Assembly: GCA_020427005.1 (NCBI GenBank) | Contig: JAGQOY010000006.1 | Location: forward strand, 1-64,000 | Source of the DNA: Planctomycetales bacterium | GTDB taxonomy: Bacteria; Planctomycetota; Planctomycetia; Pirellulales; Pirellulaceae | Length of the DNA stretch: 64,000 nt | Reading direction: 5' to 3' | Shown: one piece after another, positions 10,074 through 57,450 of the stretch | Layout of the letters: each line of letters starts with the position of its first letter | How positions within the stretch are numbered: the stretch's first letter is position 1 | Translations under genes and position numbers: made by a program | Notes under the pieces: model-generated | Told to the model about the DNA's origin: nothing | The model's database searches: none | Seen by the model: only the letters and a program-made list of their open reading frames with translations

Positions 10074-10149
10074 TGCCACCTCTTTTCATAACAACAATAT
10101 GGTTTACTCCGTACTTGTACTCAGAATTACATTACAAGATCTCGAGTCC

Positions 10150-10310: not shown

Positions 10311-10514
10311 ATGACATGCTCGCTCCAAGCAGCTTTTATCGTCCGTGCCATTCTACCGATTCGTCTGGATGTTAGTGGTTGAATACCCACATACGCATGC
10401 TGCCAGTGCGAGAACAGGCTAGTTCATTATGCGTTGACACGCATCACCACAACAAAACTCCAGTCAGTTTCCTTGTCTACGGGTGGCACTGGCTTTGCCA
10501 GTGTCTATTTGGGT

Positions 10515-11120
10515 TCAATCCAGAAAGCCCATGGGTAGGCCATGAACGTACGGTGACCCAGATGTCTGTTGTCTTGGAGGTTCATTCAGGTAATAGCTGG
10601 CAGATGACCATTTCCAATCTACGGCCTTTTTGCACAACCTTCGTCGTTCAGGATTTTCATGTATGTAGTTAATAGAGTGCAATACGACGTTTTTTGAAAA
10701 AATATTTCGGTCATAGCCTGGTCCTTCTTGCCAGAATCGAAAACTTGTTTTCCCGGGTCGTTCTCGAATGGTAAGTTTTTCGAGAAGACGTGAGCGATTG
10801 TTTGTCAGGACCTCTTTGATCTGTTTCGAGAACGGTTGCTTGATCCGACCGAGGTAATGACCAATCATTGGCTTCTCTTCCAAAGGCAATGTCAGGAGAT
10901 GAAGGTGCTCAGGCATGAAAACGAAAGCCACCAGTTGAAACCGGTACTCTTCGTTGGCAGCGTCAAGTGTCCGAGCCAAACGTTCTCTCCATTCGTCATT
11001 GGTCAACAGTGGTAACCGCCGATAGGTAGAAAAAGTAAACTCGTGCATGTGCCCGGGCTCGTGATAATGTCTGATTTGCTTTCGATTTTGCATTTTGACA
11101 ATTACCAAGCAGGGTATCAT
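10515..11120 (-). CDS. REP-associated tyrosine transposase (RAYT), intact
   Basis: RAYTs are single-copy IS200/IS605-like Y1 enzymes that cut and process REP palindromes as single strands. The sequence has the N-terminal HEFTFSTYRRLPLL, the metal-binding HxH pair in FVFMPEHLHLL, and the C-terminal helix SINYIHENPERRRL carrying the presumed catalytic Tyr, followed by WKWSSASYY. Length (201 residues, or 192 from a second in-frame ATG at 11093) is normal for the family. REP palindromes flank it at 10487-10503 and 11131-11147. It is the only complete copy in the array and would be the source of activity for the broken ones. Confidence 0.92.
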   Translation of the reverse strand: MIPCLVIVKMQNRKQIRHYHEPGHMHEFTFSTYRRLPLLTNDEWRERLARTLDAANEEYRFQLVAFVFMPEHLHLLTLPLEEKPMIGHYLGRIKQPFSKQIKEVLTNNRSRLLEKLTIRERPGKTSFRFWQEGPGYDRNIFSKNVVLHSINYIHENPERRRLCKKAVDWKWSSASYYLNEPPRQQTSGSPYVHGLPMGFLD

Positions 11121-11310
11121 GACGGAGTTGCACTGGCAAAGCCAGTGGCACCCATTACATTCCGCACGGAGCTGCTTTCATTCGTGCCATTGTACCGATT
11201 CGTCTGGATGTCAGTGATCGAAGACAGTTAGAATACCCACAACATACGCATGTTGCCAATTGTACGGACAGGCCGATTCATATCAACAAAAACTCCATCA
11301 GTTCCCTTGT

Positions 11311-11475
11311 CTACGGGTGGCACTGGCTTTGCCAGTGCTTATGTGGGTCAATCCAGAAATCCCAATGGTAGGCCATGAATGTACGGTAAACCAGATGTCT
11401 GTTGTCTTGGAGGTTCGTTCAGGTAGTAGCTGGCAGATGACCATTTCCATACTACGGCCTTTTTTCCACATCGTA
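11311..11475 (-). pseudogene. RAYT C-terminal remnant
   Basis: From the REP at 11321-11337 to about 11460 the sequence matches the terminal 45 codons of the intact RAYT copy almost base for base (GGGTCAATCCAGAAATCCCA through CTGGCAGATGACCATTTCCA), then similarity ends abruptly. The matching other end of a unit (GACGGAGTTG plus a REP) appears at 12168-12199. The interval between them holds a different small gene. Confidence 0.8.
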
Positions 11476-11561
11476 TGTTTCTTCGTCGAAACTAGACAAC
11501 GGCTCTGCCCGTGTTCGTGGCATTTGCCATTCCTTATGAAGATTACAGGTGCAGGGCGTTG

Positions 11562-11927
11562 CTAGCGCTTCAGGTCCTTATTTTTAGGTTTCCGTAATGG
11601 TAGAGCTTCCATTAGTTGTTTCAAGAGTTTTCTTGAGTTGTGGTCATCGTCGAATCCGACAAGCAGCATTCGTATTTGTCCACTTTCTTCGTCGAACTCA
11701 GGTATATTGAAATTGTGGCACTCCCAACATATCGTGGTCTCGAATAGAAGCTTGTCTTCGCGATAAAATCGAAGTCCGTAAGGTGGAGTATGGCACAAGG
11801 CACCATTTTCACGGAAGCTCAGATGACGCCACGTCTCAACAATAGCCTTGCAGCGATTGCCCTTGATCGTCACGTGCTCATCGACATCTGCTACAAATTC
11901 ATCTTCCTCTTCCACATCGCTAGTCAA
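11562..11927 (-). CDS. Hypothetical protein, 121 aa
   Basis: I do not recognise it. The N-terminus is acidic (EEEDEFVADVDEHV), followed by a compact region with three Cys (NGALCHTPPYGLRFYREDKL, then TTICWECHNFNIPEF) and a basic tail (PLRKPKNKDLKR). CWEC is a possible half zinc knuckle. It sits between a RAYT left end (11311-11475) and a REP right end (12168-12199), so it may be cargo of the array. The coding call rests on an uninterrupted frame and a protein-like composition only. Confidence 0.5.
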   Translation of the reverse strand: MTSDVEEEDEFVADVDEHVTIKGNRCKAIVETWRHLSFRENGALCHTPPYGLRFYREDKLLFETTICWECHNFNIPEFDEESGQIRMLLVGFDDDHNSRKLLKQLMEALPLRKPKNKDLKR

Positions 11928-12060
11928 AGGAGATGACAGTATAAAACGTTCTTTAGAAGGAGATCGAGGAGTTGGATTTTCATCGTTCGGAAAGCTTGAA
12001 TTACTCCAATCAACGTCGAGACGAAAAAGTTCTAGGCGGTCGGCCTCGGGAAATGATTCA

Positions 12061-12126
12061 GTAACCCGAAGCGTCAGAGCGTCAGCGAGGGGCTGGGCAC
12101 ATTCCCTCGATGACGCTTCGGGTTAC
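12061..12126. repeat. Inverted repeat, AACCCGAA family
   Basis: Perfect 16-base arms, GTAACCCGAAGCGTCA at 12061-12076 and its complement at 12111-12126, enclose a partly complementary centre (GCGAGGG and CCCTCG). It is the second copy of the family seen at 2170-2224. The rest of 11928-12377 holds a REP palindrome at 12177-12193 and no gene. Confidence 0.9.
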
Positions 12127-12377
12127 TTTTTCAGCAGATTGCTAGTGCCTACACAAGCATTTACTTGACGGAGTTGCACTGGCAAAGCCAGTGGCACCCA
12201 TTGCATGCCACTCTTCGTAACTTCGTCTAATGGAAATATTTGCTTGTCCAAACCTGGAGTGGCTGAGGAATTACTGTTTGTCTTAGGCAAATCTTAATCT
12301 TGGCGCGTTCGTCGCTATCATGACTTGGGATACAATTGAGACCCAGTTCAAAAAGTGTTCAAATCCTGGAGTCAGTA

Positions 12378-14972
12378 ATGTTGCAGTTCCTTTACGTTAT
12401 AGTTTCAACGATTGGCCTTTTGGTTCTCACTGGCGGTGGAATTTTGGCCCAAGTTGAGATTGACTCCATCGAGCAGATACGATCTTCTGCAACCCAAGCC
12501 TATCGCCTTCCCGGAACCCAAAAGGACGGCCAAGTATTGCTCCCGACTCAATGGTCATTGAATCCCGCCGGGAAACATTTGCAGGTTGGTGACTTTCCAG
12601 TAACTATCGAAATGCATCCGCTGGAGAGTTACGCGGCTGTACTTCATGCTGGTTATGGCGACCACGAAATAGTCGTAATTGAGTTGAACGATTTTTCCAT
12701 CGTTTCACGCGTTTCTTTGCCCGAAACCTTTGTAGGTCTACGTTTCAATTCAACCGGAGATCGGCTATATGCGAGTGGAGCAGAACAAGAAGTCGTCCAC
12801 CAATTCACTTTTCAAAAAGGAAATTTGTTTAATCATGAAATCATTCAAGTCGTGCCCGCTGATCAAAGCCAAGTTCCTGCCGGTATAACCGTTTCAAGTG
12901 ATGACACGACTTTATACGTAGCGTGTCCGTGGGGGAATAGCGTATGCGTACTGCCGCTAGATTCGCCAACGAAAAAGCAATTCATTAAATTCGCACCCGA
13001 TTCCTTTCCTTATTTCGCTTTGCCTGATGCGAATAATCAGCGATTATATGTGAGTCTCTGGGGAAAGTCGGCTATTGCCGTGGTAAATCTTGCCAATCTG
13101 GAGATTATCGACAACTGGAATACGGAATCTCACCCAACCGAATCACTGTTAACCCAGGACCAACAAACTTTGTATGTGGCGTGTGCCAACAGCAATTGCG
13201 TGACTGTCATAGATACGGAGTCCGGTAAGTCACTTGAGGTAATTTCTTCAGCCCTCTATCCAACTGCTGCTAACGGTAGTACGCCAAATAGCGTTTCACT
13301 TTCGCCAGACGAGAACGTTCTCCTCATCGCAAACGCAACGAATAACAATATTGCTGTCATCGATGTGCAACATCGTGGTCACAGTCGATCACTCGGGTTT
13401 GTGCCGGTTGGATGGTATCCCACTTGTGCTCGGTTCGGTCCACACGATGAAAATATTTATGTCGCTAATGGCAAAGGGTTGTTGCCCAAAGCAAACCGTC
13501 ATGGACCTAACCCACTAAGTCGCGTACCGAAAACTGTTCAAGAATATATCGGTGGCTTGTTTCAAGGGACAATTTCAAAAATTGAACCTCCGAGTCCTGC
13601 AGAAATGATTGACCTTACGCAAATGGCATTTGCATGTAGTCCATTACGAGAAGATCAAGCTCCAGTTGTTACACCGTCTGAAAGCAACAATCCCATTCCT
13701 GCACAAGTAGGCGAAGAGAGCCCAATCAAGTACTGTATCTACATCATCAAAGAAAACCGCACTTACGATCAAGTGTTGGGTGATCTGCCTCAGGGCAATG
13801 GTGATCCGTCGCTGTGCATCTTTCCTCGCCATGTTACGCCCAATCACCATGCGTTGGCCGAACAGTTCGTGTTACTTGATAACTTTTATGTTGAGAGTGA
13901 AGTAAGTGCTGACGGACATGAATGGTCGATGGCTGCCTATGCTACGGATTTTGTGGAGAAAACCTGGCCGCTCAAATATCGGGGGTCTAGAGAGGGAAAA
14001 CTGAAGTATCCAGCTGAGGGCACTTACGAGATTGCTCAACCCAGTAGCGGCTACATTTGGGACAAAGCCAAAGCGGCTGGAGTAAGCTATCGAAGTTATG
14101 GAGAGTTCATTTCTAATCCGGTAACCCAAGGTGCAAAGGCCACAGCCAAAGTCAAAAGTCTTGAAGGACATTTTGATCCAGATTTTCATGGTTACGATCT
14201 AGATTACCGGGACGTAGATCGGGCTGCGCGGTTCTTGAGCGAGCTGGAGCGATTTGAACGCGAAGGGGACATGCCCCGGCTTCAAATTCTCCGTATACCC
14301 AATGACCATACCTATGGAACAGCCGTAGGCAAGCTAACCCCCACGGCAATGGTCGCTGACAATGATTTGGCTTTTGGTCAGATTGTTGAAGGGTTGTCCA
14401 AATCGAAATTTTGGCCCGAATTGGCGATATTTGTTGTCGAAGATGATGCACAAAACGGTTCTGATCACGTGGACGCTCATCGCACGATTGCGTTTGCAAT
14501 CAGTCCCTATGTGAAGCGTGGTTACGTCGACAGTAGCATGTACTCTACCTCTAGCCTGCTTCGAACGATCGAACTAATTCTTGGGATGGAGCCGATGACC
14601 CAGTTCGACGCGGCAGCCCTACCCATGTATGCTTCATTTACGCCGGAGTTGAACTCTGCAACATATAAACATCTCCCGGCTCAGGTGAATCTTCAAGAAC
14701 GCAACGATCAGCACGCATTCGGCGCTCAGCTTTCTGCAACCTTTGATTTTTCGCAAGAAGACGCTGCCGATGATCTATTGTTGAATGAAGTAATCTGGAG
14801 AAGCGTCCGCGGACCAGAGAGTCCGATGCCTGCGCCCGTACGCGCAGGATTTGTGTTTGCAAGCATCGATATTGATGACGATGATGACGCTGAAGAAGGT
14901 GACTTTGACGGCGATGACTTTGACGGCGATGAAAAAAGCCGAGATGGCGATCAACAAGGCAAGCCGCGATAG
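12378..14972 (+). CDS. YncE-type beta-propeller fused to a phosphoesterase domain
   Basis: A signal peptide (MLQFLYVIVSTIGLLVLTGG) supports the ATG at 12378, which has CTGGAG about six bases upstream; an in-frame TTG lies 42 bases earlier. Residues about 75-360 are propeller repeats (FVGLRFNSTGDRLYASG, SPDENVLLIANATNNNIAVI). Residues about 450-745 match the phosphoesterase / phospholipase C-like superfamily (KYCIYIIKENRTYDQVLGD, SADGHEWSMAAYATD, LRIPNDHTYGT). The C-terminus is a strikingly acidic tail of Asp/Glu/Gly repeats. It is probably an exported enzyme hydrolysing a phosphate ester; the substrate cannot be read from sequence. Confidence 0.85.
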   Translation: MLQFLYVIVSTIGLLVLTGGGILAQVEIDSIEQIRSSATQAYRLPGTQKDGQVLLPTQWSLNPAGKHLQVGDFPVTIEMHPLESYAAVLHAGYGDHEIVVIELNDFSIVSRVSLPETFVGLRFNSTGDRLYASGAEQEVVHQFTFQKGNLFNHEIIQVVPADQSQVPAGITVSSDDTTLYVACPWGNSVCVLPLDSPTKKQFIKFAPDSFPYFALPDANNQRLYVSLWGKSAIAVVNLANLEIIDNWNTESHPTESLLTQDQQTLYVACANSNCVTVIDTESGKSLEVISSALYPTAANGSTPNSVSLSPDENVLLIANATNNNIAVIDVQHRGHSRSLGFVPVGWYPTCARFGPHDENIYVANGKGLLPKANRHGPNPLSRVPKTVQEYIGGLFQGTISKIEPPSPAEMIDLTQMAFACSPLREDQAPVVTPSESNNPIPAQVGEESPIKYCIYIIKENRTYDQVLGDLPQGNGDPSLCIFPRHVTPNHHALAEQFVLLDNFYVESEVSADGHEWSMAAYATDFVEKTWPLKYRGSREGKLKYPAEGTYEIAQPSSGYIWDKAKAAGVSYRSYGEFISNPVTQGAKATAKVKSLEGHFDPDFHGYDLDYRDVDRAARFLSELERFEREGDMPRLQILRIPNDHTYGTAVGKLTPTAMVADNDLAFGQIVEGLSKSKFWPELAIFVVEDDAQNGSDHVDAHRTIAFAISPYVKRGYVDSSMYSTSSLLRTIELILGMEPMTQFDAAALPMYASFTPELNSATYKHLPAQVNLQERNDQHAFGAQLSATFDFSQEDAADDLLLNEVIWRSVRGPESPMPAPVRAGFVFASIDIDDDDDAEEGDFDGDDFDGDEKSRDGDQQGKPR

Positions 14973-46510: not shown

Positions 46511-46917
46511 CAAGTGCCGGATACGAAATTGCTCGAACAGAAACTTCGTGCAGGGCCGGATCGAGCAGGACAAAACCTCGGTACCCAGTTCGAGCGTGTT
46601 AATAAAGCTGCTGGGGTAATTCCGTGGCCAAAGCTCTTCGTAAATCTGCGGTCTACACGGCGAATTGAGCTACAAGAGAAATTCCCAAGCCATGTCGTGG
46701 ACGCTTGGCTGGGGCACTCAACCAAGGTAGCAGAGAAGCGTTACCTACAAGTAACCAATGACCATTGGCAGTCAGGCCCCAGTTCTGCGACAAGCCTATT
46801 CCGTCTCCTTACTGGTCCCCTTGTCAGTAACATATCAGGGCCCATCACGATCCAGCAAAGAAATCAAGAAACCAATGTTTTGCTTGGTTCTGATGGTTCC
46901 TGCTGGCCCATGATGGA
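46511..46917 (+). pseudogene. C-terminal remnant of an older tyrosine recombinase
   Basis: NKAAGVIPWPKLFVNLRSTR, RIELQEKFPSHVVDAWLGHS, TKVAEKRYLQVTNDHW aligns with the intact integrase at 56084 (VPWPRLMQNLRATRETELLA, KYPAKDVTSWLGNS, VATKHYAMA). It keeps one catalytic Arg, the His of LGHS and the Tyr, but everything before is missing. It ends exactly at the left att repeat, in the same orientation and position as the intact integrase has to the right att. This is the end of an earlier element in the same tRNA site. Confidence 0.85.
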
Positions 46918-46941
46918 CAGCCTAATACCCCCAACAGGACT
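46918..46941 (+). other. Left attachment site of the 10.4-kb element
   Basis: The 24 bases match 57371-57394 with one mismatch (A for G at the eighth base). The shared core contains TACCCCCAACAGGACT, the antisense of the tRNA-Arg 3' end. Similarity stops abruptly on both sides. Confidence 0.92.
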
Positions 46942-47232
46942 TCGCCAGCGCAAGAAAAACAAGGGATTCTTGAACGATGGTCAGATTTTGCCCCAGAAAA
47001 TACCCCTGAGGCTGCCATCGCAGCGGATTGCATCGCCAAAACCCTTAAACCGATGGAAATACAATTCCTAGTTACTGAACTGCAGCGGAGGGGGCATGGT
47101 CAATTCTGATCGATGCTTCACTAGCGACCCACTGATCGGAATGTATAGTTGTCTCCAAGATTGCAATTTGTCACGATAGTCGGGATTACTGCTTTTAGTG
47201 CTTCAAACTATCGCCTTTTAGGGAGATCTTTT

Positions 47233-47985
47233 ATGAGATCGCTACTGATTCTGCTGTCGGCCGTATTGTGCAATGTGGCGTCTGCTGACCTGATTGATTC
47301 TGGTAATCCCAGGTTTTCTGCCGGTGGGTGGGCGTTCGAACTTCCCAATGGAGGCGTTATAAGTCAAACCATCGAATTTGCGACCACATCGGGTCCAGTC
47401 GGAACATTTGACAATCTCAACAACATAATCAATTACACGACCAGCTTTTCTACTTCTTCATCTCAAAGCGTGTCTAGATCTGACAGCATTAACTATACAA
47501 CGCAAATAAGTAATGGGTATTGGGATGCGTTTGGGTATCACCCACCGGAGATAGTTACTGACCACTATGTGTTTTTGACGACTTTGGATTTGTTAACCAT
47601 GTCGTTTGCTCCCATTCCAGCCGACGTGCCAGTATTTTCATATTCGCAACGTACGGCACAAACGGGACCAGTGCCACAAATATCAACATTCACGCTGACT
47701 GGGACATGGACTATTCAGGGACCAACGGAAACTGCAACTGGACCAATTTCTGTTACTGGTCAAATGGCATCTAATGGTGTTATTTTATTAGAAAGAAGTG
47801 CAAACGGTCCAATTACTTCGTGGTCACCACAGTTTGGTTTTTCCGGCGCGCGTGAGGCATCCGAAATGTCCGTCGTTGTTAATGGCCGAACATTTACGAT
47901 GTATGCGGTACCAGAACCGTCCATGGCGGCTTTGTACCCATTTGCTGCGATGTTTGTCTTAAGAAGAAAACGATCGCGAATGTAA
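47233..47985 (+). CDS. PEP-CTERM sorting-domain protein
   Basis: Signal peptide MRSLLILLSAVLCNVASADL; C-terminal sorting tail VPEPSMAALYPFAAMFVLRR followed by KRSRM, that is VPEP, a membrane helix and a basic end. Such proteins are exported and processed by exosortase, often to the surface. The middle is Ser/Thr-rich beta sequence. ATG 47233 has GGGAG seven bases upstream. It lies at the left end of the element beside att and may be cargo or stranded host sequence. Confidence 0.85.
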   Translation: MRSLLILLSAVLCNVASADLIDSGNPRFSAGGWAFELPNGGVISQTIEFATTSGPVGTFDNLNNIINYTTSFSTSSSQSVSRSDSINYTTQISNGYWDAFGYHPPEIVTDHYVFLTTLDLLTMSFAPIPADVPVFSYSQRTAQTGPVPQISTFTLTGTWTIQGPTETATGPISVTGQMASNGVILLERSANGPITSWSPQFGFSGAREASEMSVVVNGRTFTMYAVPEPSMAALYPFAAMFVLRRKRSRM

Positions 47986-48289
47986 CTGTTTGAATTGACC
48001 GACTACCCCCACCCGGGTTCTATGTGGGTCCTACCTTAGAATCTGTCTTCTCTGCGGTGACCGAAGAGCCCAAAAGTTAATACGAAAGTCCGTCCGGCAA
48101 TTGCGTTTGGGGAAAGGGGGCATAATTGCCTGCAAAGTATGGTTTTGATTCTTGCGTCATAGAAATACAATGGCCAGCAGGAATCTTTATCGGGTAGCAG
48201 TTTGATCCGCTGCGGCATGCCCTGAGTAGCCCAGCCTGCATTGTGGTTACTCAGTGCATGGCCCGTCCAATTTGATGCAGGAATCTAAG

Positions 48290-49723
48290 ATGTCACGGAC
48301 TAGGGACCGGGGTGCCATCGTCGCGCCCGCTGTTGATAGGCAGCAACTGTTGAGTGATTTAGTTCGGCGATCAGCTGAGTATCGGATTTACTCAGGCAAA
48401 GTGCTGCGAGACGGGGACAGTTTCAAGCTGCTGTATTATCCGAAACCAGAGGAATATCTGATTGAAGACAAACGGTTGGCCTGGAACGATGGGGTTCGAG
48501 CACTGGAACAGATTGCTCCCAGAGCTGTTAGTTACCTGCGCAGCAGAGGAGCTGAGTTGCCGGCAGCAGAAACGCCTGGGGCAAGTCTGATGGCATGGGT
48601 GCTGCGAGATTGGTTAGTCGGCATGCGAGGCAGTGCCCATTCCATCACAACCGCATTTGATGCAATCCGAGAGGCAATTCTGATGATGGATGGCAATGTA
48701 TTGGAACTTGCCACTGAACTTTACGGAAAACTACTAGACCTATCGGGATTCTTTCACAGGCTAAGCCACAGCAGATTCAATATAGCTTTCGACCCTGAAC
48801 ATTCTCCCGATACAAACCAGGCCATGCTGGAAAAATTTCAGGCTAGCTATCGGTTTGATTTTGACCATTTGAACGAAACGCTGGCTGTGCTAAATGGCGG
48901 TTGTGGAAACAAGGGTATCCGACAGCATTCAGTGCTTAGCATGCACATATTCGATACCATTGCACATCAGAGGGAACGATTGTTGCCGGCCGAAAAGAAT
49001 ACATTTGCAGACCAGGCAATCGACAGGTTTAAGACGATCAAAGGACTATACCTGCGTTTATCAGAATCGTTGTCCAAGCCGGTTTCTATTGAATCGAAAG
49101 TGGTTGAAGATATTCGCATTTGGCGAGAATTTGAATTCGATGATGACTTTAGCCAGCAAATTAAGGGGCTTCAATGGGAAGCATCTACCATTCGCATGTT
49201 GGTACACGAACGGGGAGGAATGCAGGTAGCATCGCCACAGCCAGTAGAACCACCAGCTGCCCCATCGAATCCGAGCGGCCAGCCTGAGCAGAAGCGTAAA
49301 GGTGGGAATAAAAAGAAAGGCGATCCGAGGTTCGACGTGAACATAGAATTCATCCTCAAAGCCATCCTTACAAAGCACCACAAGTACAGCGAATCCATCG
49401 TTGATGGGCACGAGGTGCATGGACTGGACCAGACCCCGCTGTCGCTGCCGGATATGATTGCTGAATTAGCAGAATCGGGACGCCAGATTGAATCAAAGGA
49501 TACGATGGGCAACTACTTAGGCAGGCTGTTGCCAGGAAAGCCCACATCCAAAATACACACCCACTATAAACGACTCTGCAAAGACACAACCGGGCTGTAC
49601 TTCTTTCTTAGAGGGTGTGCAGGAGATGTTGCAGAGTTGAAAGCGAGGACGAACCTCAGTGATGATATTGAGCGGAACCTAGGCGGCGATGATTCGGATG
49701 ATGAATTTGAGAGTGATAACTAG
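48290..49723 (+). CDS. Unknown element-encoded protein, 477 aa
   Basis: I do not recognise it. No signal or membrane segment. The first 330 residues look helical (RQQLLSDLVRRSAEYRIYSG, FDTIAHQRERLLPAEKNTFA). A Pro/Gln/Lys-rich linker near residue 335 (EPPAAPSNPSGQPEQKRKGG) leads to a C-terminal domain with a winged-helix feel (FILKAILTKHHKYSESIVDG, TMGNYLGRLLPGKPTSKIHT) and an acidic tail. AGGA lies about eight bases before ATG 48290. As the largest unknown gene of the element it is a candidate for a regulator or an accessory function such as defence. Confidence 0.6.
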   Translation: MSRTRDRGAIVAPAVDRQQLLSDLVRRSAEYRIYSGKVLRDGDSFKLLYYPKPEEYLIEDKRLAWNDGVRALEQIAPRAVSYLRSRGAELPAAETPGASLMAWVLRDWLVGMRGSAHSITTAFDAIREAILMMDGNVLELATELYGKLLDLSGFFHRLSHSRFNIAFDPEHSPDTNQAMLEKFQASYRFDFDHLNETLAVLNGGCGNKGIRQHSVLSMHIFDTIAHQRERLLPAEKNTFADQAIDRFKTIKGLYLRLSESLSKPVSIESKVVEDIRIWREFEFDDDFSQQIKGLQWEASTIRMLVHERGGMQVASPQPVEPPAAPSNPSGQPEQKRKGGNKKKGDPRFDVNIEFILKAILTKHHKYSESIVDGHEVHGLDQTPLSLPDMIAELAESGRQIESKDTMGNYLGRLLPGKPTSKIHTHYKRLCKDTTGLYFFLRGCAGDVAELKARTNLSDDIERNLGGDDSDDEFESDN

Positions 49724-49726
49724 TCT

Positions 49727-49841
49727 GTTCGGGCATTCGGGTAATAAGCCCGAACGGCAACTGCCTTTCTCACATTTTCTCAGCCTGTATTTCACTATCC
49801 GATTTTGAAAAGTTGCAACATTCGGGCATGGGCTACCCGAA
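49727..49841. repeat. Paired inverted repeats upstream of the AlpA-like gene
   Basis: GTTCGGGC/GCCCGAAC (49727-49734 and 49748-49755) and TTCGGG/CCCGAA (49821-49826 and 49836-49841) share one motif, TTCGGGYA. They lie 70-185 bases before the AlpA-like gene and could be operators or recombination-directionality sites. Confidence 0.55.
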
Positions 49842-49911
49842 CGCAGCACATAGGTATATAGCACGCAGCATAACGCTGCTGGCACTGACTCTACCTTTGT
49901 GAGGCATTTCT

Positions 49912-50136
49912 ATGGAAAAGCAGTTTGAGCTGTTTCCACCCGTTGAGCGGCTGTTGAACTACGAACAGCTGCAAGAGAAGTTAGGCGGAATCACCCGCCG
50001 AACTATCGACCGTTGGTTATCTGAAGGCATCTTTCCAGCTGGCTGTAAGGTTCTGATTTCTGGTTCGGCCAGGTTTCGCGAATCGGCAGTAGACGAATGG
50101 ATTCGGGCAGGATGCCGAGGGGCTGGTGATGAGTAA
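49912..50136 (+). CDS. AlpA/MerR-like helix-turn-helix protein
   Basis: A 74-residue protein with LLNYEQLQEKLGGITRRTID, RWLSEGIFPAG and a C-terminal ARFRESAVDEWI. This is the layout of small excisionase/AlpA-type winged-helix proteins that bind att DNA or activate the integrase. ATG 49912 follows TGAGGCATTTCT. It overlaps the next gene by eight bases, implying translational coupling. Confidence 0.82.
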   Translation: MEKQFELFPPVERLLNYEQLQEKLGGITRRTIDRWLSEGIFPAGCKVLISGSARFRESAVDEWIRAGCRGAGDE

Positions 50137-50293
50137 GCCAGGCCACACCATCTGCGACGGATGCGGGGCAACGATCACCTATGAAACGCCCTGCCAGTTG
50201 TGGTGCATGTTCTGCGGCTGGTTGGAACCCGAGCCATGCGATTGCCCAGACTGTGCGGCTGCGGCAGATGGGGATGGGCCAGTTGAAGATTAG
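50129..50293 (+). CDS. Small zinc-ribbon protein, 54 aa
   Basis: MSKPGHTICDGCGATITYET, PCQLWCMFCGWLEPEPCDCP, DC: nine Cys in 54 residues with CDGC, CMFC and CDCPDC pairs, so at least one zinc site. It starts inside the end of the AlpA-like gene (ATGAGTAA overlap), typical of a compact operon. Function unknown; small zinc proteins in mobile elements are often transcriptional co-regulators. Another frame open through 50268-50555 overlaps the next gene and is not called. Confidence 0.7.
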   Translation: MSKPGHTICDGCGATITYETPCQLWCMFCGWLEPEPCDCPDCAAAADGDGPVED

Positions 50294-50445
50294 CAACGTC
50301 TACCGCAGTAAACAGCGGACACCCAAACAGCCCAGGAAATCGAAACCGCAGGCTGTTCGTATCGAACCACTACCTGGCTGCTATTGGATGTGCGGTCACA
50401 TCCCAGCCAGTGAAAACGATTGTTCATGTTCAAGGAATGTTAGTT

Positions 50446-50889
50446 ATGAAAATCAGCCAACAATTTGCAGGCAGTTACCTGAAAGCAGCAGACCTACCAC
50501 AGCCCAGAGTATTTGCGGTTCAATCCGTTGTGATGGGCAAGATGCCAGAGGGTGATGAAAAGCCCGTTTTGAATTTTGCAGGTTCAGACCAGGCACTAGT
50601 TTTGAACAAAACGAACGCAACCATTCTGGCCGAGCTGTGGGGCGATGAAACCACAGCCTGGCATGGGCAGCTAGTGGAACTGTACGCGACTACTACGAGT
50701 TTCGGTGGTCGCATGGTTCCATGCATTCGAGTTAGGGCAGCCCAGGTGCAAACTGCTGCACGGCAGCCAGCACCAGTGCCCCAGCCATCAGCACCGCAGC
50801 CAACAGTGCCGCAGCCTACTGCCGCACCTGCCCAGCAACAGCTGCCGCTACAACCAGCACCTGCACCCGATTATCCGCTGGATGCATAG
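50446..50889 (+). CDS. Phage-type conserved protein, 147 aa
   Basis: The first 95 residues (FAGSYLKAADLPQPRVFAVQ, KPVLNFAGSDQALVLNKTNA, TILAELWGDETTAWHGQLVE, GRMVPCIRV) match a small protein common in phages and mobile elements near replication genes; I know of no assigned activity. The last 45 residues are a Pro/Gln/Ala repeat tail. ATG 50446 is internal to a longer frame from 50410 but starts the conserved part. Confidence 0.75.
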   Translation: MKISQQFAGSYLKAADLPQPRVFAVQSVVMGKMPEGDEKPVLNFAGSDQALVLNKTNATILAELWGDETTAWHGQLVELYATTTSFGGRMVPCIRVRAAQVQTAARQPAPVPQPSAPQPTVPQPTAAPAQQQLPLQPAPAPDYPLDA

Positions 50890-50892
50890 GCC

Positions 50893-51069
50893 ATGGATAT
50901 TATCGAACAGCTGGTGCTGTTTGTCGGATGGTATGCAGACCGAATGCAGCTGCCGTTGCAGCAAGCCATTCATGTGCTGCATGCCATCTACGACAGCCGT
51001 AAAGATGCTCTGCTGCCATTGGTAGAGCAATTCAAACAGGAACAGCAAGGCAGCAGCCATGCTGACTGA
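50893..51069 (+). CDS. Small helical protein, 58 aa
   Basis: MDIIEQLVLFVGWYADRMQL, PLQQAIHVLHAIYDSRKDAL, then LPLVEQFKQEQQ: an all-helical amphipathic protein. It begins three bases after the stop of the preceding gene. Composition and spacing argue for a real gene. Function unknown. Confidence 0.6.
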   Translation: MDIIEQLVLFVGWYADRMQLPLQQAIHVLHAIYDSRKDALLPLVEQFKQEQQGSSHAD

Positions 51070-51148
51070 TCCCCATTCAATGCAGCAGCCCTGGCAAGTT
51101 TTGCGACTACGGCCAGGGCTGCTGATGTTCAAGGATGTTACCGAATGA
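51059..51148 (+). CDS. Possible micro-protein, 29 aa
   Basis: MLTDPHSMQQPWQVLRLRPG, LLMFKDVTE: it starts 11 bases inside the end of the preceding gene and its stop overlaps the ATG of the primase gene (ATGA). The coupling pattern is suggestive, but the frame is short and could be chance. Confidence 0.35.
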   Translation: MLTDPHSMQQPWQVLRLRPGLLMFKDVTE

Positions 51149-53487
51149 ATTATACCCAAACTGTTACGAACTACCTAACGCATGGTTTCAACTGCCTGCC
51201 TTTGCAAGTGGATGGTAGCAAGAAACCCATCGGCAGCTGGTCCCATCTGCAAGACCGGCAACTGTCCGAACATGAAATCAAAACCTACTGGGATTCACCC
51301 ACACCGGCTGGCATCGGCATACTGGCCGGCCAGAGTAGCCACAACCTGCACATCATCGACTTTGATGCAGAGGCTGAGATTTACTTTCAGCGGTTCTGGG
51401 GTTGCCTGATGGCAAACTACCCTGAGCTGGTGAATAAGGTGCTGGCAGTTGCGACACCCAGACCAGGCAGGCAAGTATGGTTTCGGCAAGAATCAAAACC
51501 GCCGAAGTCTCAGCAGTTGGCACTGACTGAACCGCAGCCCACTGGTGAAACTGATGCAGATGGGAATGAAATACTGCTGCCAGTTATTCTGGTCGAAACC
51601 AGAGGCAGTGGCGGTTATGCAGTGGCAGTAGGTAGCCCAGCTGCGGTTCATCCAACTGGAGAACCTTACCAGTTGATTCATGGTAGCTATGAACAGCTTC
51701 CTATCATCACCGATGCAGAGGCAGACATTCTGCTGGACATTTGCAGAGGCTACACTCGCTACCAGTTGGATAACGTACAGCGGCAGCTAGGTGAACGCTA
51801 CGCAGGTGAACCCAGACCAGGTGATGTTTACAACCAGCATGCAGACATTCGGCAGCTGCTGTTAGATGCTGGCTGGAAATCACACCACTGGGAAGCAGAT
51901 ACCGAGTATCTAACGCGACCAGGTAAAGCCGTTTCAGATGGATACAGTGCAACGCTGGGCTATGTTCGCAGCGAAGACGATAAACCGCTGCTGATTGTGC
52001 ATTCGGCTGCGGCTGCACCATTCACAAAGGGCAGCTGTTACGATGCCTTTGCTGTATCGGCACTGCTTAACCATGATGGCGATTTCTCGCAGGCAGCGGC
52101 TGCGGCCAAAATTGAATACGCCCAGCAGGTGAACGCTGCCCAGGTAGGTTTTGCACAGAATCAGAGAATCGAAACCGAGCAGCAGTATCAGCCATTCCCA
52201 GTGGAGCTGCTGCCCGATGTGGTGCAGCAGTATGTGGCGGAACATTCCGCTGCTATCGGTATTGATGCTGCATTCATTGCAGTGCCGATGCTGCCCTGCC
52301 TAGCTGCACTGATTGGCAATAGTCGGCAGGCATTCATCAAACGGGGTTTCACACAGCCCAGCATCATCTGGGCGGTTACGATTGGCGATGTAAGCAGAGG
52401 CAAGACACCAGGCTGGATGGCAGGCACTGCCCCCGCTGATGCCATTGAACATAGATTACACCAATGGATGCACCAGACCAAGCAGACCTACCAGCAGCAG
52501 CTGCAAGAATTTGAACTGGGGAAACGCGAATCGAAACCGGCAAAGCCTGATACCAGCATGCAGCTGGTGGTGAATGATTTCACGATGGAAACGCTGATCG
52601 ACATTCACCAGCATAACAGTAAGCTGCTGTTGAGCATTGATGAGCTGGCCGCATGGGTCCGCAGCATGGACCAGTACCGAGCTGGCAAAGGCCGCGATTG
52701 TGAGAACTGGCTAAGCATCTACAACGGCGGCAAAATCCAAGTAAACCGCAAGACCGATGGCTACCGAGTCTACCTACCGCAGACCTGCATCAGTGTATGC
52801 GGAACCATTCAACCCGCAGTTGCCCAGGAAACCATCTTTACCGAACGCTTCATTGCGAATGGTTTTGCGGCCAGGATTCTATCAGCTTACCCACCCGCTG
52901 AGATTGTGAGCTGGTCCGATTCGGAAGTACCCCAGCAGGTAGATGATGCCATGATGCAACTGGGGCAGCGATTGTATGCCTTGGCTGGTGAACCACATGG
53001 CAGCAGCACCCGGCCGAAATTGTTACCGCTGGATGATGCAGCCCTGGTACTGTTCAAGCAGTGGATGTACGACGCAGCAGCCCATGTAGCAGAAATGCCC
53101 ATCGACCTGCAGAACGCATGGCTGAAACTGCGACCAATTGCAGCCAGATTTGCACTGGTGCATTCAGTAGTTCGGCAACTGGTACAACATCCTGATGGAA
53201 ACGCTGTGCGACCTATCGACCAGCACAGCATGCAGGCTGGCATTCAGCTGGCCTGGTGGTTCGGCCATGAGATAGAACGCAACTACAACGTAGGCAGCAG
53301 CCCAGATGACTTACAAAGCCATTTCAAATGGATACTGGCCAAGCATCCAATTGGGATTGATGCTCGAGGATTGCTAACAGGCAGATGGTCAATCAAGACC
53401 GCAGCAGAGGCCAGACAAGTGATTCAGCAACTGCTTGAACAGGGTTTCGGCAGGCTGGATGGTTCCATCTTCATTCCCCACAAATAA
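51145..53487 (+). CDS. Prim-Pol / DUF3987 replication protein
   Basis: Residues about 8-215 are a bifunctional primase-polymerase domain (GFNCLPLQVDGSKKPIGSWS, HIIDFDAEAEI with the metal-binding Asp pair, VETRGSGGYAVAVGSPAAVH, PTGEPYQ). Residues about 350-640 are DUF3987, a helicase-like domain with a P-loop-like GDVSRGKT at about 413-420, DELAAWVRSMDQY and a TERFIANGFAARIL segment. It probably primes and helps unwind the element DNA. It precedes the polymerase gene by 171 bases that hold an origin-like repeat region. Confidence 0.87.
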   Translation: MNYTQTVTNYLTHGFNCLPLQVDGSKKPIGSWSHLQDRQLSEHEIKTYWDSPTPAGIGILAGQSSHNLHIIDFDAEAEIYFQRFWGCLMANYPELVNKVLAVATPRPGRQVWFRQESKPPKSQQLALTEPQPTGETDADGNEILLPVILVETRGSGGYAVAVGSPAAVHPTGEPYQLIHGSYEQLPIITDAEADILLDICRGYTRYQLDNVQRQLGERYAGEPRPGDVYNQHADIRQLLLDAGWKSHHWEADTEYLTRPGKAVSDGYSATLGYVRSEDDKPLLIVHSAAAAPFTKGSCYDAFAVSALLNHDGDFSQAAAAAKIEYAQQVNAAQVGFAQNQRIETEQQYQPFPVELLPDVVQQYVAEHSAAIGIDAAFIAVPMLPCLAALIGNSRQAFIKRGFTQPSIIWAVTIGDVSRGKTPGWMAGTAPADAIEHRLHQWMHQTKQTYQQQLQEFELGKRESKPAKPDTSMQLVVNDFTMETLIDIHQHNSKLLLSIDELAAWVRSMDQYRAGKGRDCENWLSIYNGGKIQVNRKTDGYRVYLPQTCISVCGTIQPAVAQETIFTERFIANGFAARILSAYPPAEIVSWSDSEVPQQVDDAMMQLGQRLYALAGEPHGSSTRPKLLPLDDAALVLFKQWMYDAAAHVAEMPIDLQNAWLKLRPIAARFALVHSVVRQLVQHPDGNAVRPIDQHSMQAGIQLAWWFGHEIERNYNVGSSPDDLQSHFKWILAKHPIGIDARGLLTGRWSIKTAAEARQVIQQLLEQGFGRLDGSIFIPHK

Positions 53488-53490
53488 CAG

Positions 53491-53642
53491 TCTCAGCACC
53501 TCAGCAAATCTGCACCTCAGCAACAGTTGAGACATTACAGGACAGTATCTCGCAGGCATTTTGGCAGGCTAGGTAGACTACGATGCAAAGTCTCAATATG
53601 TCCTAACGCTTGCAGAGTTGCTAAGCTGCTGAGGTGCTGAGA
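53491..53642. repeat. Candidate replication origin: iterons and inverted repeats
   Basis: TCTCAGCACCTCAGCA (53491-53506) and its exact complement (53627-53642) bound the gap between the Prim-Pol and polymerase genes. The 10-mer CACCTCAGCA occurs twice directly (near 53497 and 53513) and once inverted. Inside, TTGAGAC/GTCTCAA (53527-53533, 53590-53596) and AGGACA/TGTCCT (53539-53544, 53599-53604) are further inverted pairs. Repeats of this density beside replication genes are typical of an origin; a regulatory role is the alternative. Confidence 0.65.
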
Positions 53643-53658
53643 ATAGGATTTTGCACCC

Positions 53659-55809
53659 ATGGAAACGACTATCGGAAATCAGGACTACACCTGGCAGCAC
53701 TGGGATGGGCAGCAGTTGGGCAAGTATGTAGCCATCGACACCGAAACCACATTGATAACTGGGCACCGCATACCGCAGCTATGCCTGGCAAGTTGTAGCG
53801 ATGGGCAGCAGCATTTCATTATCCACCCAGACCAGCTGGGCAGTTTCCTGAACCAGCATCTGCCCAGTGGTAGCCATTTAATCATGCACAATGCTGCATT
53901 CGATTTTTGGGTTTTGGATAAGCACCTGGCGAGCAGCGGTGGCGATGATGCACGCAGTTGGATGTGGTCAACAGTGGATGGTGGTAGGTTTCACGATACG
54001 ATGCTGCTGCATGCACTGGTAACGCTAGCCCAGAGCGATGATGACACCATGCACAGCCTAGCAGAGCTGGCCAGCAAGCTGCTGGGGATTCAGTTGGACA
54101 AGGATTCCTACCGAACTCGATATGCTGAAACCATCGGCCAGGACTGGCAGCAGTTGGATGTGGGTTTCTTTCAGTACGCAGTTACTGATGCCATCGTTAC
54201 CTGGCAGTTATTCTGCAAACTGACGCACCAGGCCAGCAGCATCTGCCAGCATCACAATCTGAACCGCAGCTACGGGTTTCTGACTGAACGGTTACAAGTG
54301 CAGGCAGCTATCAGCCTGGCCGCGATTACTCGCAATGGAATGCATGTAGACCTGGACCGAGCTGCCCAGTTGCAACAGCGGATAGATGCGGGAATCAAGC
54401 AAGAAGTGGAAACCATGCAGCAGATTGATGCAGGGCTATGGCACACCTACGTTAAAAATGGATTGTTCAAAACGAACAAGGAAACTGGCCTGCCCAAGAT
54501 GAACCAGAAACGGCTGCTAGAACATCTGCAACGCATTGCTGATGAGCACCAGTTGAAAGTGCCATTGACGGCTACGGGGCAGATTTCAAGCAGTGTGAAC
54601 GAATGCTGGACCCAGTACACCGAGTTGCACCCTCTGATAGCTGCCTATTGCACTTACACCGAGCTAACCAAACTGCGAACATTCTTTGCCGCTTTGGATA
54701 AGCCTACCATTCACCCCACATACCGAACCCTAGTTAGGTCAGGCCGCACCAGTTGCAGCGGTCCGAACATTCAGCAGCTGCCTGCACGCAGCCCCATACG
54801 CGATGCCATTACAGCAAAGCCAGGGCATCTGCTTTTCATCATCGACTACAACGCATTGGAGCTGCGAACGCTGGCCGCAGTATGTTATGAGCGAATCGGA
54901 TTCAGCAGACTGCGGGATGTCCTAATAGATGGCACTGATCCGCACAGCTACGCTGCTGCCATGTTTGCTGGTATCGACTTGGCTGCATTTGAGCAGCTAC
55001 CGAATAAGAAACAGCTACGGCAGCAGGCTAAGGTATTCAATTTTGGATTGCCTGCAGGTTTTGGTGCTGCTGCCCTGGTGGATCATGCCAAGTTTGCCTA
55101 CGGGGTAACGATAACGCAGGCAGAGGCTGAACAATTCATTGAACAGCTAACCAGGCAAGTCTACCCAGAGTTGCAGCTGTATCTGGCCGAAGATACTGCC
55201 AGCATCGTAGCCCAGATTTTGCAGGCTGATGTAGTGCAGATTCGAGCTACCTGGCCGCAGCAGTACCACATGGGGCTGCTACGCAGATTGCTGGCCGGCC
55301 ACCAATGCAAACGCGATGGAACACCCTACCAGCAACGCACGATTGATACTGCTTGGCAGCAGCTGGAAACCCTTTGTAGAAACCCACACCTGCTGCCATT
55401 CATTCAGCGGGGTGATACTTCCGAATCATCACCGCTACGCAGATTGTTTAATTCGACTGTGAGCACAACCACTGGCCGCATGCGAGGTGGCGTACCATTC
55501 ACCGCAGCCAGGAATGCACCATTCCAAGGACTGGCCGCAGATGGCTGCAAGTCTGCCATGTGGAACCTAACCAGGGCTGGTTACCGAGTAGTGGCATTCA
55601 TTCACGATGAGTTTATTATCGAATTGAACAAACTGGACGACATAGACCGAGCATCGGCAGAGATACCGAGTATCTGCCAGCAGAGCATGCGGCCATTCGT
55701 TCCTGGCATACCAGTTCCAGTTGAATTTGCCCTAACCCACCGCTGGGATAAGGCAGCCCATGCAGTTTGGAGCGAACAGGGGCAGTTGCTGGAATGGGCT
55801 ACTGCTTGA
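53659..55809 (+). CDS. Family A DNA polymerase with 3'-5' exonuclease
   Basis: The N-terminal exonuclease has IDTETTL (residues 26-32) and LIMHNAAFDFWVLD (near 75). The polymerase has SGRTSCSGPNIQQLPARSPI, motif A FIIDYNALELRTLA (near 394), motif B KKQLRQQAKVFNFGLPAGFG (near 450) and motif C AFIHDEFIIEL (near 646). At 716 residues it is phage-like: no 5' nuclease domain. All catalytic Asp and Lys/Tyr-region residues appear present. It should copy the element, possibly with the Prim-Pol as primer source. Confidence 0.93.
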   Translation: METTIGNQDYTWQHWDGQQLGKYVAIDTETTLITGHRIPQLCLASCSDGQQHFIIHPDQLGSFLNQHLPSGSHLIMHNAAFDFWVLDKHLASSGGDDARSWMWSTVDGGRFHDTMLLHALVTLAQSDDDTMHSLAELASKLLGIQLDKDSYRTRYAETIGQDWQQLDVGFFQYAVTDAIVTWQLFCKLTHQASSICQHHNLNRSYGFLTERLQVQAAISLAAITRNGMHVDLDRAAQLQQRIDAGIKQEVETMQQIDAGLWHTYVKNGLFKTNKETGLPKMNQKRLLEHLQRIADEHQLKVPLTATGQISSSVNECWTQYTELHPLIAAYCTYTELTKLRTFFAALDKPTIHPTYRTLVRSGRTSCSGPNIQQLPARSPIRDAITAKPGHLLFIIDYNALELRTLAAVCYERIGFSRLRDVLIDGTDPHSYAAAMFAGIDLAAFEQLPNKKQLRQQAKVFNFGLPAGFGAAALVDHAKFAYGVTITQAEAEQFIEQLTRQVYPELQLYLAEDTASIVAQILQADVVQIRATWPQQYHMGLLRRLLAGHQCKRDGTPYQQRTIDTAWQQLETLCRNPHLLPFIQRGDTSESSPLRRLFNSTVSTTTGRMRGGVPFTAARNAPFQGLAADGCKSAMWNLTRAGYRVVAFIHDEFIIELNKLDDIDRASAEIPSICQQSMRPFVPGIPVPVEFALTHRWDKAAHAVWSEQGQLLEWATA

Positions 55810-55861
55810 AATGCAATCGCGGCTTGATTATCATTCGGATAACTTATCAGAGAGATATACA

Positions 55862-56083
55862 ATGGCTAAGCGGAAACATCAGAAAAAGCCGATGACGATT
55901 CAGCAGCAGCTGCTTGCCCACATTCAAGCATCAGGCATGACACAGAGACAAATTGCCGAGCTGGCAGGAATGCCTGAGAGCAATGTAAGCAGTTTTATAT
56001 CTGGCAAACGGGGCATTAGCTTGAAATCCCTGAACAGCATATGCATTGGTTTGGAATTGGATCTGATTAAGAGGGGCAGCTAA
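55862..56083 (+). CDS. XRE-family helix-turn-helix regulator
   Basis: 73 residues: a basic start (MAKRKHQKKPM), then the HTH LLAHIQASGMTQRQIAELAG, MPESNVSSFISGKRGISLKS. It abuts the integrase gene with stop and start adjacent (TAAATG), so the two are co-expressed. It is a candidate repressor controlling excision and replication. The ATG 55862 begins the family match; an open frame upstream overlaps the polymerase gene. Confidence 0.85.
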   Translation: MAKRKHQKKPMTIQQQLLAHIQASGMTQRQIAELAGMPESNVSSFISGKRGISLKSLNSICIGLELDLIKRGS

Positions 56084-57409
56084 ATGGCAACTGTTCGCAG
56101 ACGCGAAAACGGTTCAATTGAAATCCGATTCATTGACCACAACGGCAAACGCAAAAGCCTATACCCCGGCCAGGTGGCACTGCGGGATGGTGAAAGCATG
56201 GCAGCCAAAGTAGAGCACATCGTTAGCCGCAAGGTGCAGGCATCCAGCCCTGATGTAGCTGTTGCCCATTGGATTGCTGGGTTATCCGATAAGCTGCACA
56301 GCAAGCTGGTGAAACTCGACCTAGTACCAGCAAGGGAACCATCGGAACCGCAGGCAGAACTGGCCGCAGCAGATGCAGTGCAGATGCCTACCATTAAGCA
56401 TTGGACTAATAGTTACATCGAACAGCACCCAGGCAAGGAACGCACCATTCTGAATCTGAAACAGTCCGCGAAAAACCTTTGCACATATTTCAAGCCAGAT
56501 AAGGCACTGGATTCATTCACTGCTGGTGATGCTGAGCGGTTCCGCAAGTGGCTGCAAGGCAAAGGGCTAGCCGAAAACACAGTCAGATGCAGGATTCGCA
56601 GGGCTAAGCAGTTTTTCAACGCAGCCATGAAAGATGAACTGTTAGAGCGGAACCCATTCGCGGCTGAGAAATCAGTTGTGGGCGGCAACGATAGCCGGCT
56701 GTTCATGGTTCCTGCGGAATGGATTGAAACCCTTATCAGGAAAGCCCCCTGCGAGGATTGGCGAATTATCCTAGCCTTTGCCCGCTACGCTGGGATGCGA
56801 GCACATGAATGCTGCATGCAACGCTGGGAAGATATCGACCTGGCAAATAATCGCATGGTGATACGCAGCAACAAAACCCCACCTATCCGCAGCTGCCCGA
56901 TATTCCCAGAGCTGCGGCCACACCTTTTGCGAGCTAGGGAAATGGCACCAACCGGGGCTGAGTATGTGCAGACCCGATACAGCCCTGATAGCAACCTGAG
57001 AACTACACTTCTGAAAATCATCACCGCTGCTAAGCTAGTGCCCTGGCCGCGATTAATGCAGAATCTACGAGCAACCAGAGAAACTGAGCTGTTAGCCAAG
57101 TACCCAGCCAAGGATGTGACCAGTTGGTTAGGCAACAGCCCATCAGTTGCTACCAAGCATTATGCAATGGCTACTCAGGAATCGTTCATCAGAGCAACGC
57201 AAGATGGGGCAAACCTGCCAGGAATAACTTGTGGCGTAGATTCCAAAAGTACCCCAAAAAGTACCCCACACATTGCAGGAATTGATGAGAAATGGCAGGA
57301 CACGAAAAAAGCCATAGTGAAAAACCCCAGGGAAATCTGGCATTTTCTCGCTATGGCTTTGGCTGACTCGCAGCCTAGTACCCCCAACAGGACTCGAACC
57401 TGTGACTAG
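56084..57409 (+). CDS. Tyrosine recombinase (integrase) of the element
   Basis: Catalytic residues: Arg239 in AGMRAHECC, Arg329 in NLRATRETEL (Asn327 where many enzymes have His), Asn351 in WLGNS where His or Trp is usual, and Tyr360 in TKHYAM. The SAM-like core-binding domain is at about 110-200 (KHWTNSYIEQHPGKERTILN). The last codons cross the att core and end inside the antisense of tRNA-Arg (PSTPNRTRTCD), so the C-terminus in this form comes from host sequence. In the excised circle the same frame would continue 55 codons into 46942-47109. It integrates the element at the tRNA. Confidence 0.93.
   Translation: MATVRRRENGSIEIRFIDHNGKRKSLYPGQVALRDGESMAAKVEHIVSRKVQASSPDVAVAHWIAGLSDKLHSKLVKLDLVPAREPSEPQAELAAADAVQMPTIKHWTNSYIEQHPGKERTILNLKQSAKNLCTYFKPDKALDSFTAGDAERFRKWLQGKGLAENTVRCRIRRAKQFFNAAMKDELLERNPFAAEKSVVGGNDSRLFMVPAEWIETLIRKAPCEDWRIILAFARYAGMRAHECCMQRWEDIDLANNRMVIRSNKTPPIRSCPIFPELRPHLLRAREMAPTGAEYVQTRYSPDSNLRTTLLKIITAAKLVPWPRLMQNLRATRETELLAKYPAKDVTSWLGNSPSVATKHYAMATQESFIRATQDGANLPGITCGVDSKSTPKSTPHIAGIDEKWQDTKKAIVKNPREIWHFLAMALADSQPSTPNRTRTCD
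57371..57394 (+). other. Right attachment site of the element
   Basis: Partner of 46918-46941, one mismatch in 24. It covers the last bases of the integrase frame and the 3' end of tRNA-Arg, including the acceptor and part of the T-arm, so integration keeps the tRNA whole. Confidence 0.92.
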
Positions 57410-57450
57410 GCTTTAGGAAAGCCTTGTTATATCCACTTAACTATGGGGGC
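57379..57450 (-). tRNA. tRNA-Arg(CCU)
   Basis: A complete cloverleaf on the minus strand: acceptor GCCCCCA/TGGGGGT (first pair G-T), linker TA, D-arm GTTA/TAAC, anticodon arm AGGCT/AGCCT with loop TTCCTAA (anticodon CCT), T-arm ACAGG/CCTGT with loop TTCGAGT, discriminator A. CCA is not encoded. Its 3' end is the element's integration target. In contrast to the 36-38 kb array, this tRNA is fully canonical. Confidence 0.97.

What the first reader, a model, noticed from the sequence alone, without database searches (positions are those of the whole stretch)
46918..57394. Satellite-like integrative element with Prim-Pol and family A polymerase but no virion genes
A 10.4-kb element in tRNA-Arg(CCU) has its own primase-polymerase and replicative DNA polymerase plus integrase, XRE and AlpA-like regulators, and no recognisable packaging or conjugation genes. 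This combination recalls pipolins (self-replicating integrated elements with a family B polymerase) but uses family A. It may be a planctomycete phage satellite or a self-synthesising plasmid-like element.
Basis: partly seen in the sequence, partly recalled or inferred. Interest (0 to 1): 0.78.

Follow-up and report, generated by a model that had tools for sequence, protein, structure and literature searches.

The report
Self-replicating satellite-like island at tRNA-Arg
A 10.5-kb DNA element inserted in a tRNA gene of a planctomycete-like bacterium carries its own integrase, primase-helicase, DNA polymerase and a probable replication origin but no virus-shell genes; it is one of a large, apparently undescribed family of phage-satellite-like islands, unusual because it brings its own DNA polymerase.

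Summary
24-bp direct repeats (23/24 identical) at 46918-46941 and 57371-57394 flank a 10.45-kb element, and the right copy overlaps the 3' end of tRNA-Arg(CCT). All genes read rightwards: PEP-CTERM cargo, ORF489, AlpA-like HTH, an SSB-like protein, Prim-Pol+DUF3987 helicase, exonuclease-PolA with intact motifs, XRE, tyrosine integrase. No virion, terminase or relaxase gene was found. Left of attL lies the C-terminus of an older integrase, so the site was used twice. The element is not unique. Related integrases occur in 129 of 241 genomes of the host family. Of 40 loci read, 36 run into a tRNA on the opposite strand and 19 have a detectable attL (7.4-15.4 kb). At least seven other loci in the host family carry the same PolA lineage; a second PolA lineage occurs in seven more. 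Some relatives carry TerS, TerL-fragment, portal or tape-measure genes, or defence genes. New here: in all five PolA elements with an intact replication block, inverted arrays of 8-9-bp repeats lie between primase-helicase and polA. This resembles the published PICI origin layout. Best reading: an excisable, phage-satellite-type island with its own replisome. Packaging by a helper is inferred; an integrative plasmid is the main rival. Not a pipolin.

The parts
46562..46942 (+). C-terminal ~125 codons of an older tyrosine integrase, cut at attL: remnant of an earlier element in the same tRNA gene
   Evidence: tblastn 54% to L217 Int (E 1.5e-33) and 48% to the Int of L221, which sits at tRNA-Arg(CCT) in a congener
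46918..46941 (.). attL, 24-bp direct repeat
47233..47985 (+). secreted PEP-CTERM-type protein, likely cargo (250 aa)
   Evidence: read from sequence: signal peptide and C-terminal VPEP motif + hydrophobic stretch + RRKR; GC3 0.40 against 0.46-0.58 in the other element genes; no family hit
48290..49723 (+). ORF489, large protein with a conserved C-terminal domain (probably DNA-binding regulator or initiator; inferred)
   Evidence: C-terminal domain shared with L040 ORF468 and L023 ORF329, and found in L215 at E 2.3e-6 with a profile not built from it
49912..50136 (+). AlpA/excisionase-like HTH protein
   Evidence: HTH_17 3e-7; phrog_66 excisionase 2.4e-8
50126..50293 (+). small Cys-rich (zinc-ribbon-like) ORF
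   Evidence: sequence reading; no family hit
50446..50889 (+). SSB-like protein: conserved N-terminal domain, P/Q-rich linker, tail ending DYPLDA
   Evidence: 66% identical to L040 homologue; phrog_21613 6.5e-8; SSB role inferred
50893..51069 (+). ORF58, unknown
   Evidence: no family hit
51145..53487 (+). fused primase-polymerase (AEP Prim-Pol) and DUF3987 helicase/ATPase
   Evidence: AEP motif DFD at residues 72-74, Walker A GDVSRGKT 414, Walker B IDEL
53490..53645 (.). candidate replication origin: two inverted arrays of 8-bp repeats (CTCAGCAN)
   Evidence: best inverted repeat in the whole element; 0 of 200 shuffles; same place in four relatives
53659..55809 (+). family A DNA polymerase with 3'-5' exonuclease
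   Evidence: exo motifs DTETT 27, HNAAFD 77, YAVTDA 173; pol motifs DYNALELR 396, RQQAKVFNFG 454, FIHDEF 647
55862..56083 (+). XRE/Cro-type HTH regulator
   Evidence: HTH_3 5.6e-7
56084..57409 (+). tyrosine integrase, 3' end runs into attR and the tRNA
   Evidence: phrog_1 integrase 3.6e-28; SAM_5 9e-12
57371..57394 (.). attR, 24-bp direct repeat overlapping the tRNA 3' end
57378..57450 (-). tRNA-Arg(CCT), insertion target

Best explanation
A phage-satellite-type integrative element. Integrase with AlpA-like excisionase excises a 10.45-kb circle by recombining attL and attR (inferred). The Prim-Pol/DUF3987 protein binds and opens the inverted iteron origin downstream of its own gene and lays primers; the element's exonuclease-PolA copies the circle, helped by the SSB-like protein (inferred from domains, intact motifs and conserved gene order). 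XRE and ORF489 keep it quiet while integrated (inferred). A helper phage then packages the DNA (inferred, weakest step: this copy has no TerS, so it would need a cos/pac site), after which it integrates at tRNA-Arg(CCT) in a new host. Shown here: boundaries, target site, gene set, intact catalytic motifs, conserved origin-like arrays, repeated use of the site, and the family of relatives. Not shown: excision, replication, packaging or helper.
For: att repeats and tRNA. int + AlpA/HTH_17 + DUF3987 are the three protein markers of the published PICMI satellite model. Relatives at tRNA-Gln, -Val and -Arg carry the same blocks. TerS-like genes occur in the G024 PolA element (phrog_83 9e-5) and in the tandem neighbour of the G050 PolA element (phrog_57 2e-5). 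A TerL fragment lies in an element at the same tRNA-Arg(CCT) in a congener (phrog_38 3.7e-10), and tape-measure/portal-like genes in two others. Inverted iteron arrays directly 3' of the primase-helicase gene match the published PICI origin layout of two iteron sets after pri-rep (PMC6092414), although the spacer is only weakly AT-rich. PolA belongs to a phage-type clade, apart from host PolA. Defence genes are recurrent cargo.
Against: No packaging gene in this element, and no helper: no TerL in the host draft genome. No close relative in 2.9 million IMG/VR contigs, phages or plasmids. TerS matches in relatives are weak (Pfam 19.5 bits against cut-off 24.7). Satellites normally borrow a DNA polymerase, so carrying one is atypical.
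Confidence: 0.55

Rival explanations
1. Integrative plasmid: the element lives part of its life as a free, self-replicating circle and does not depend on phage particles; it moves by transformation, vesicles or chance packaging.
For: It carries a nearly complete replisome. Cyanobacterial plasmids pGM04 (17 kb) and pDongsha4a (26.7 kb) carry an HTH protein, an AEP-primase/DnaB-helicase fusion and exonuclease-PolA, and pDongsha4a also tyrosine integrases, so such replisomes do run free plasmids.
Against: Only PolA is homologous, at 25%; no partition or relaxase genes; TerS, TerL and tape-measure genes in family relatives point to phages; no near match among 72,556 plasmids.
Confidence: 0.27
2. 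Shrunken prophage that has lost its structural genes and keeps int, regulators and the replication module.
For: The PolA and Prim-Pol modules are phage-type, and phages carry homologues.
Against: Relatives in several genera at different tRNA genes keep the same compact gene set with intact motifs; 57-63% identical homologues lie in small elements, not in phages; the origin arrays are kept in place while their sequence diverges.
Confidence: 0.12
3. Mobilisable island moved by a conjugative element.
For: Islands in tRNA genes with tyrosine integrases include such elements (general knowledge).
Against: No relaxase or T4SS family in the ORFs scanned; no oriT was sought.
Confidence: 0.05

Closest known systems
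Gram-negative PICIs (phage-inducible chromosomal islands; PMC6092414)
   Same: att-bounded small island, AlpA-like regulator, all genes in one direction, fused primase-replicase followed by two iteron sets, TerS in some relatives
   Different: integrase is the last gene and runs into the tRNA; own family A DNA polymerase; no TerS here; the spacer between iteron sets is only weakly AT-rich (54% against 49%)
PICMI satellites (PMC10803314)
   Same: integrase + AlpA (PF12728) + DUF3987 primase
   Different: not at fis, not Vibrionaceae; adds Prim-Pol domain, PolA, XRE, SSB-like protein and cargo
Pipolins (PMC7385651)
   Same: tRNA-bounded direct repeats, tyrosine recombinase, own replicative polymerase
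   Different: family A, not primer-independent family B; separate AEP primase
Tycheposons / VEIMEs
   Same: tRNA-borne, tyrosine recombinase, cargo islands, tandem use of a tRNA
   Different: original definition papers not in the library; could not be compared gene by gene
Cyanobacterial plasmids pGM04 and pDongsha4a
   Same: HTH protein, AEP-helicase fusion and PolA in the same order; integrase in pDongsha4a
   Different: free plasmids; only PolA is detectably homologous (25%); different helicase; no 8-bp arrays found at a comparable threshold
PLE of Vibrio cholerae (PMC7145576)
   Same: satellite in a setting where a Pol-I-type polymerase replicates the helper
   Different: PLE encodes only RepA and depends on ICP1 for replication; this element encodes its own Pol-I-type enzyme

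Membership tests
PICI | specific attachment sites as direct repeats | tested here: met
[quoted passage not shown]
   two inverted 8-bp arrays right after the gene; spacer 54% AT against 49% for the element; origin function untested
PICI | AlpA-type or Stl-type regulator | tested here: met
   HTH_17 3e-7, phrog_66 2.4e-8
PICI | packaging through TerS or a helper cos site | tested here: inconclusive
   no TerS in this element; TerS-like gene in the related G024 element; cos not searched because no helper is known
PICI | helper-phage induction and interference | not testable with these tools
   needs experiments
PICMI | int + AlpA (PF05930/PF12728) + DUF3987 or DUF5906 primase | tested here: met
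   model quoted
PICMI | insertion next to fis | tested here: not met
   inserted in tRNA-Arg(CCT)
Pipolin | primer-independent family B polymerase (piPolB) | tested here: not met
   the only DNA polymerase is family A
Pipolin | att direct repeats, often at a tRNA | tested here: met
Temperate phage / prophage | capsid, terminase, portal and tail genes | tested here: not met
   no such family at E<=0.001
ICE/IME | relaxase and/or T4SS | tested here: not met
   none in Pfam scan; oriT not sought
Tycheposon | defining gene modules of the original description | not tested
   original paper not in the library

The most novel reading that the evidence does not exclude
A family of phage satellites that carry their whole replicase (AEP primase-helicase, proofreading family A polymerase, SSB-like protein, own iteron origin) and so replicate without the host or helper polymerase: the PolA-based counterpart of self-synthesising elements, with PolA present in two unrelated lineages of one integrase family.
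Probability: 0.35. Interest if true: 0.75.

Novelty: new variant of a known kind. Interest (0 to 1): 0.57.

Why it matters
Known phage satellites bring a primase or initiator but take the DNA polymerase from host or helper. PLE, for instance, depends on its helper's replication machinery (PMC7145576). An island with its own proofreading polymerase and origin would let one ask directly why a satellite would pay for replication independence: to copy itself while a phage shuts down the host replisome, to avoid helper counter-measures, or to persist as a plasmid. It also opens a large, apparently unstudied mobilome in planctomycete-like bacteria, where a related integrase occurs in more than half of the genomes examined.

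Tried and rejected
Empty-site comparison by the neighbouring 1039-aa gene: synteny is not conserved, so no empty allele was found. Viral-contig scans with the SSB-like, Prim-Pol/DUF3987, Prim-Pol/AAA_25 and PolA alignments: no close relative; exact att pattern in viral contigs: none. Genome-contig scan with PolA: one 32% hit only. Terminase search of carrier genomes: none in the host. ORF489 as hidden TerS or capsid gene: no family support, not accepted. Pipolin membership rejected (no PolB). One Pfam call failed on a wrong coordinate.

Full report
WHAT IS THERE. ARAGORN and Rfam place tRNA-Arg(CCT) at 57378-57450 on the minus strand. A 24-bp repeat, CAGCCTA[A/G]TACCCCCAACAGGACT, lies at 46918-46941 and 57371-57394; the right copy covers the last 16 nt of the tRNA. 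The 16-bp core occurs only twice in the window, with 0.03 expected by chance. All recognised genes between the repeats read rightwards, and the integrase is last, its 3' end running into the tRNA.

GENES. The 780-aa protein is a Prim-Pol (1.3e-15) fused to DUF3987 (2.5e-46). The 716-aa protein is an exonuclease (3.3e-17) plus DNA_pol_A (6.2e-32). The catalytic signatures can be read directly: exonuclease DTETT, HNAAFD, YAVTDA; polymerase DYNALELR, RQQAKVFNFG, HDE; AEP motif DFD; Walker A and B. Others are an AlpA/excisionase-like HTH, XRE, a conserved 147-aa protein with a P/Q-rich linker and acidic tip that looks like an SSB (role inferred), ORF489, and a secreted PEP-CTERM-type protein of lower GC that is probably cargo. 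No virion, terminase or relaxase family was found in the ORFs scanned.

SITE HISTORY. The sequence up to attL (46562-46942) encodes the last ~125 residues of another integrase, 48% identical to the integrase of an element in the same tRNA-Arg(CCT) gene of a congener (L221). So an earlier element sat here and has mostly decayed. Tandem elements also occur in L023 and L024.

RELATIVES. Close cousins: L040 (complete genome; SSB-like 63%, Prim-Pol 57%, PolA 64%, Int 60%, at tRNA-Gln, attL 23.6 kb away, with what read as type I restriction genes as cargo, identified by eye) and L024 (PolA 69% over a partial gene, Int 59%). A sister group (L023, L141, L142, L143; tRNA-Val, tRNA-Gln) has PolA at 41-46% identity and, where the gene is present, a Prim-Pol fused to an AAA_25 helicase. 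L145 holds a further partial copy. Ten of 241 genomes of the host family match the PolA profile at E<=1e-50, including more distant copies in larger elements. The maximum-likelihood tree puts element PolAs in two fully supported clades, near phage polymerases and far from host PolA. IMG/VR phage homologues are about 35% identical or less. The integrase has relatives at E<=1e-35 in 129 of 241 genomes. Of 40 loci read, 36 end at a tRNA on the opposite strand and 19 have a detectable attL, giving 7.4-15.4 kb. Their replication blocks vary (DUF3987, Prim-Pol, DnaB, AAA_25, DnaG-type primases), and restriction-modification genes recur. A second, unrelated PolA lineage (~580 aa) is carried by seven of the 40 loci (family A confirmed by Pfam in one; no meaningful similarity to the window PolA).

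PACKAGING SIGNS IN RELATIVES. TerS-like genes: L023 (phrog_83 9e-5; below the Pfam cut-off) and the tandem element in L024 (phrog_57 2e-5). TerL N-terminal fragment: L221 (3.7e-10). Tape-measure: L208 (9.4e-25) and L218 (8.5e-6), the latter with a portal-like gene (1.2e-4). This is the main ground for preferring a phage-satellite reading. The window element itself has no such gene, and its host draft genome has no recognisable TerL.

CANDIDATE ORIGIN. Between the primase-helicase and polA genes (53488-53658) lie two inverted arrays of 8-bp units: CTCAGCAC CTCAGCAA ATCTGCAC CTCAGCAA and, reversed, four similar units. In L040 the same place holds GTCAGCA units; L023, L141 and L142 have their own sequences (period 8, 8, 9). 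In every case no shuffle of 200 equals the inverted repeat. In the window, L040 and L023 it is the best inverted repeat of the whole element or stretch scanned. Sequence diverges while layout and both arms stay matched, as expected for sites that coevolve with a binding protein. Published PICI origins lie immediately 3' of the pri-rep gene and have two iteron sets (PMC6092414). The spacer here is 54% AT against 49% for the element, so the 'AT-rich' point is weak.

MECHANISM. Excision by Int with AlpA-like protein; initiation by Prim-Pol/DUF3987 at the arrays; synthesis by the element's own PolA with the SSB-like protein; repression by XRE (and perhaps ORF489); packaging by a helper phage; reintegration at tRNA-Arg. 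Boundaries, genes, motifs, arrays and family are shown; every functional step is inferred.

COMPARISON. Three PICMI protein markers are met but not its site. PICI features are met in part. Pipolin fails on the polymerase. Cyanobacterial plasmids with an AEP-helicase fusion and PolA show that such replisomes support free plasmids, which keeps the integrative-plasmid rival alive. Literature searches found no satellite with a family A polymerase and no planctomycete satellite in the library held; that library is partial and lacks the original tycheposon paper.

LIMITS. The assembly is a draft. No reads, no empty allele and no experiment. Host taxonomy is inferred from gene content; notebook entries that name the host family 'Pirellulaceae' go beyond what was tested.

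Noticed in passing
L213 (genome G160), 9285-12413 minus and neighbouring ORFs: An att-bounded element of the same integrase family at tRNA-Ser(CGA) carries Cas9-like (HNH_4, RuvC_III, Cas9_a), Cas1- and Cas2-like genes and a CRISPR-like repeat array: a mobile satellite-like island with a type II CRISPR-Cas system.
   Followed up: partly
L186, L204, L206, L207, L209, L210, L211: A second, unrelated family A polymerase (~580 aa) recurs in these loci, in those inspected without an obvious primase-helicase beside it.
   Followed up: partly
L208 7388-9523 and L218 7161-13804: Small elements of the same integrase family with tape-measure, portal-like and TerS-like genes, possibly capsid- or tail-forming satellites or small phages.
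   Followed up: partly
window 47233-47985: A PEP-CTERM-type secreted protein gene of low GC3 (0.40) is carried as apparent cargo next to attL.
   Followed up: no
L040 7248-7385: A second 8-bp direct-repeat array (ACTGTCCC) lies after ORF468 in the L040 cousin; it might be a second control site.
   Followed up: no
window 56084-57409 and related integrases: The His of the HxxR box of the tyrosine recombinase reads Q, V or other in this family (QNLR, VNLR), an unusual catalytic variant.
   Followed up: no
L231 (plasmid pDongsha4a): The 26.7-kb cyanobacterial plasmid holds two copies of an int/HTH/AEP-helicase/PolA block, like a cointegrate of two related elements.
   Followed up: no
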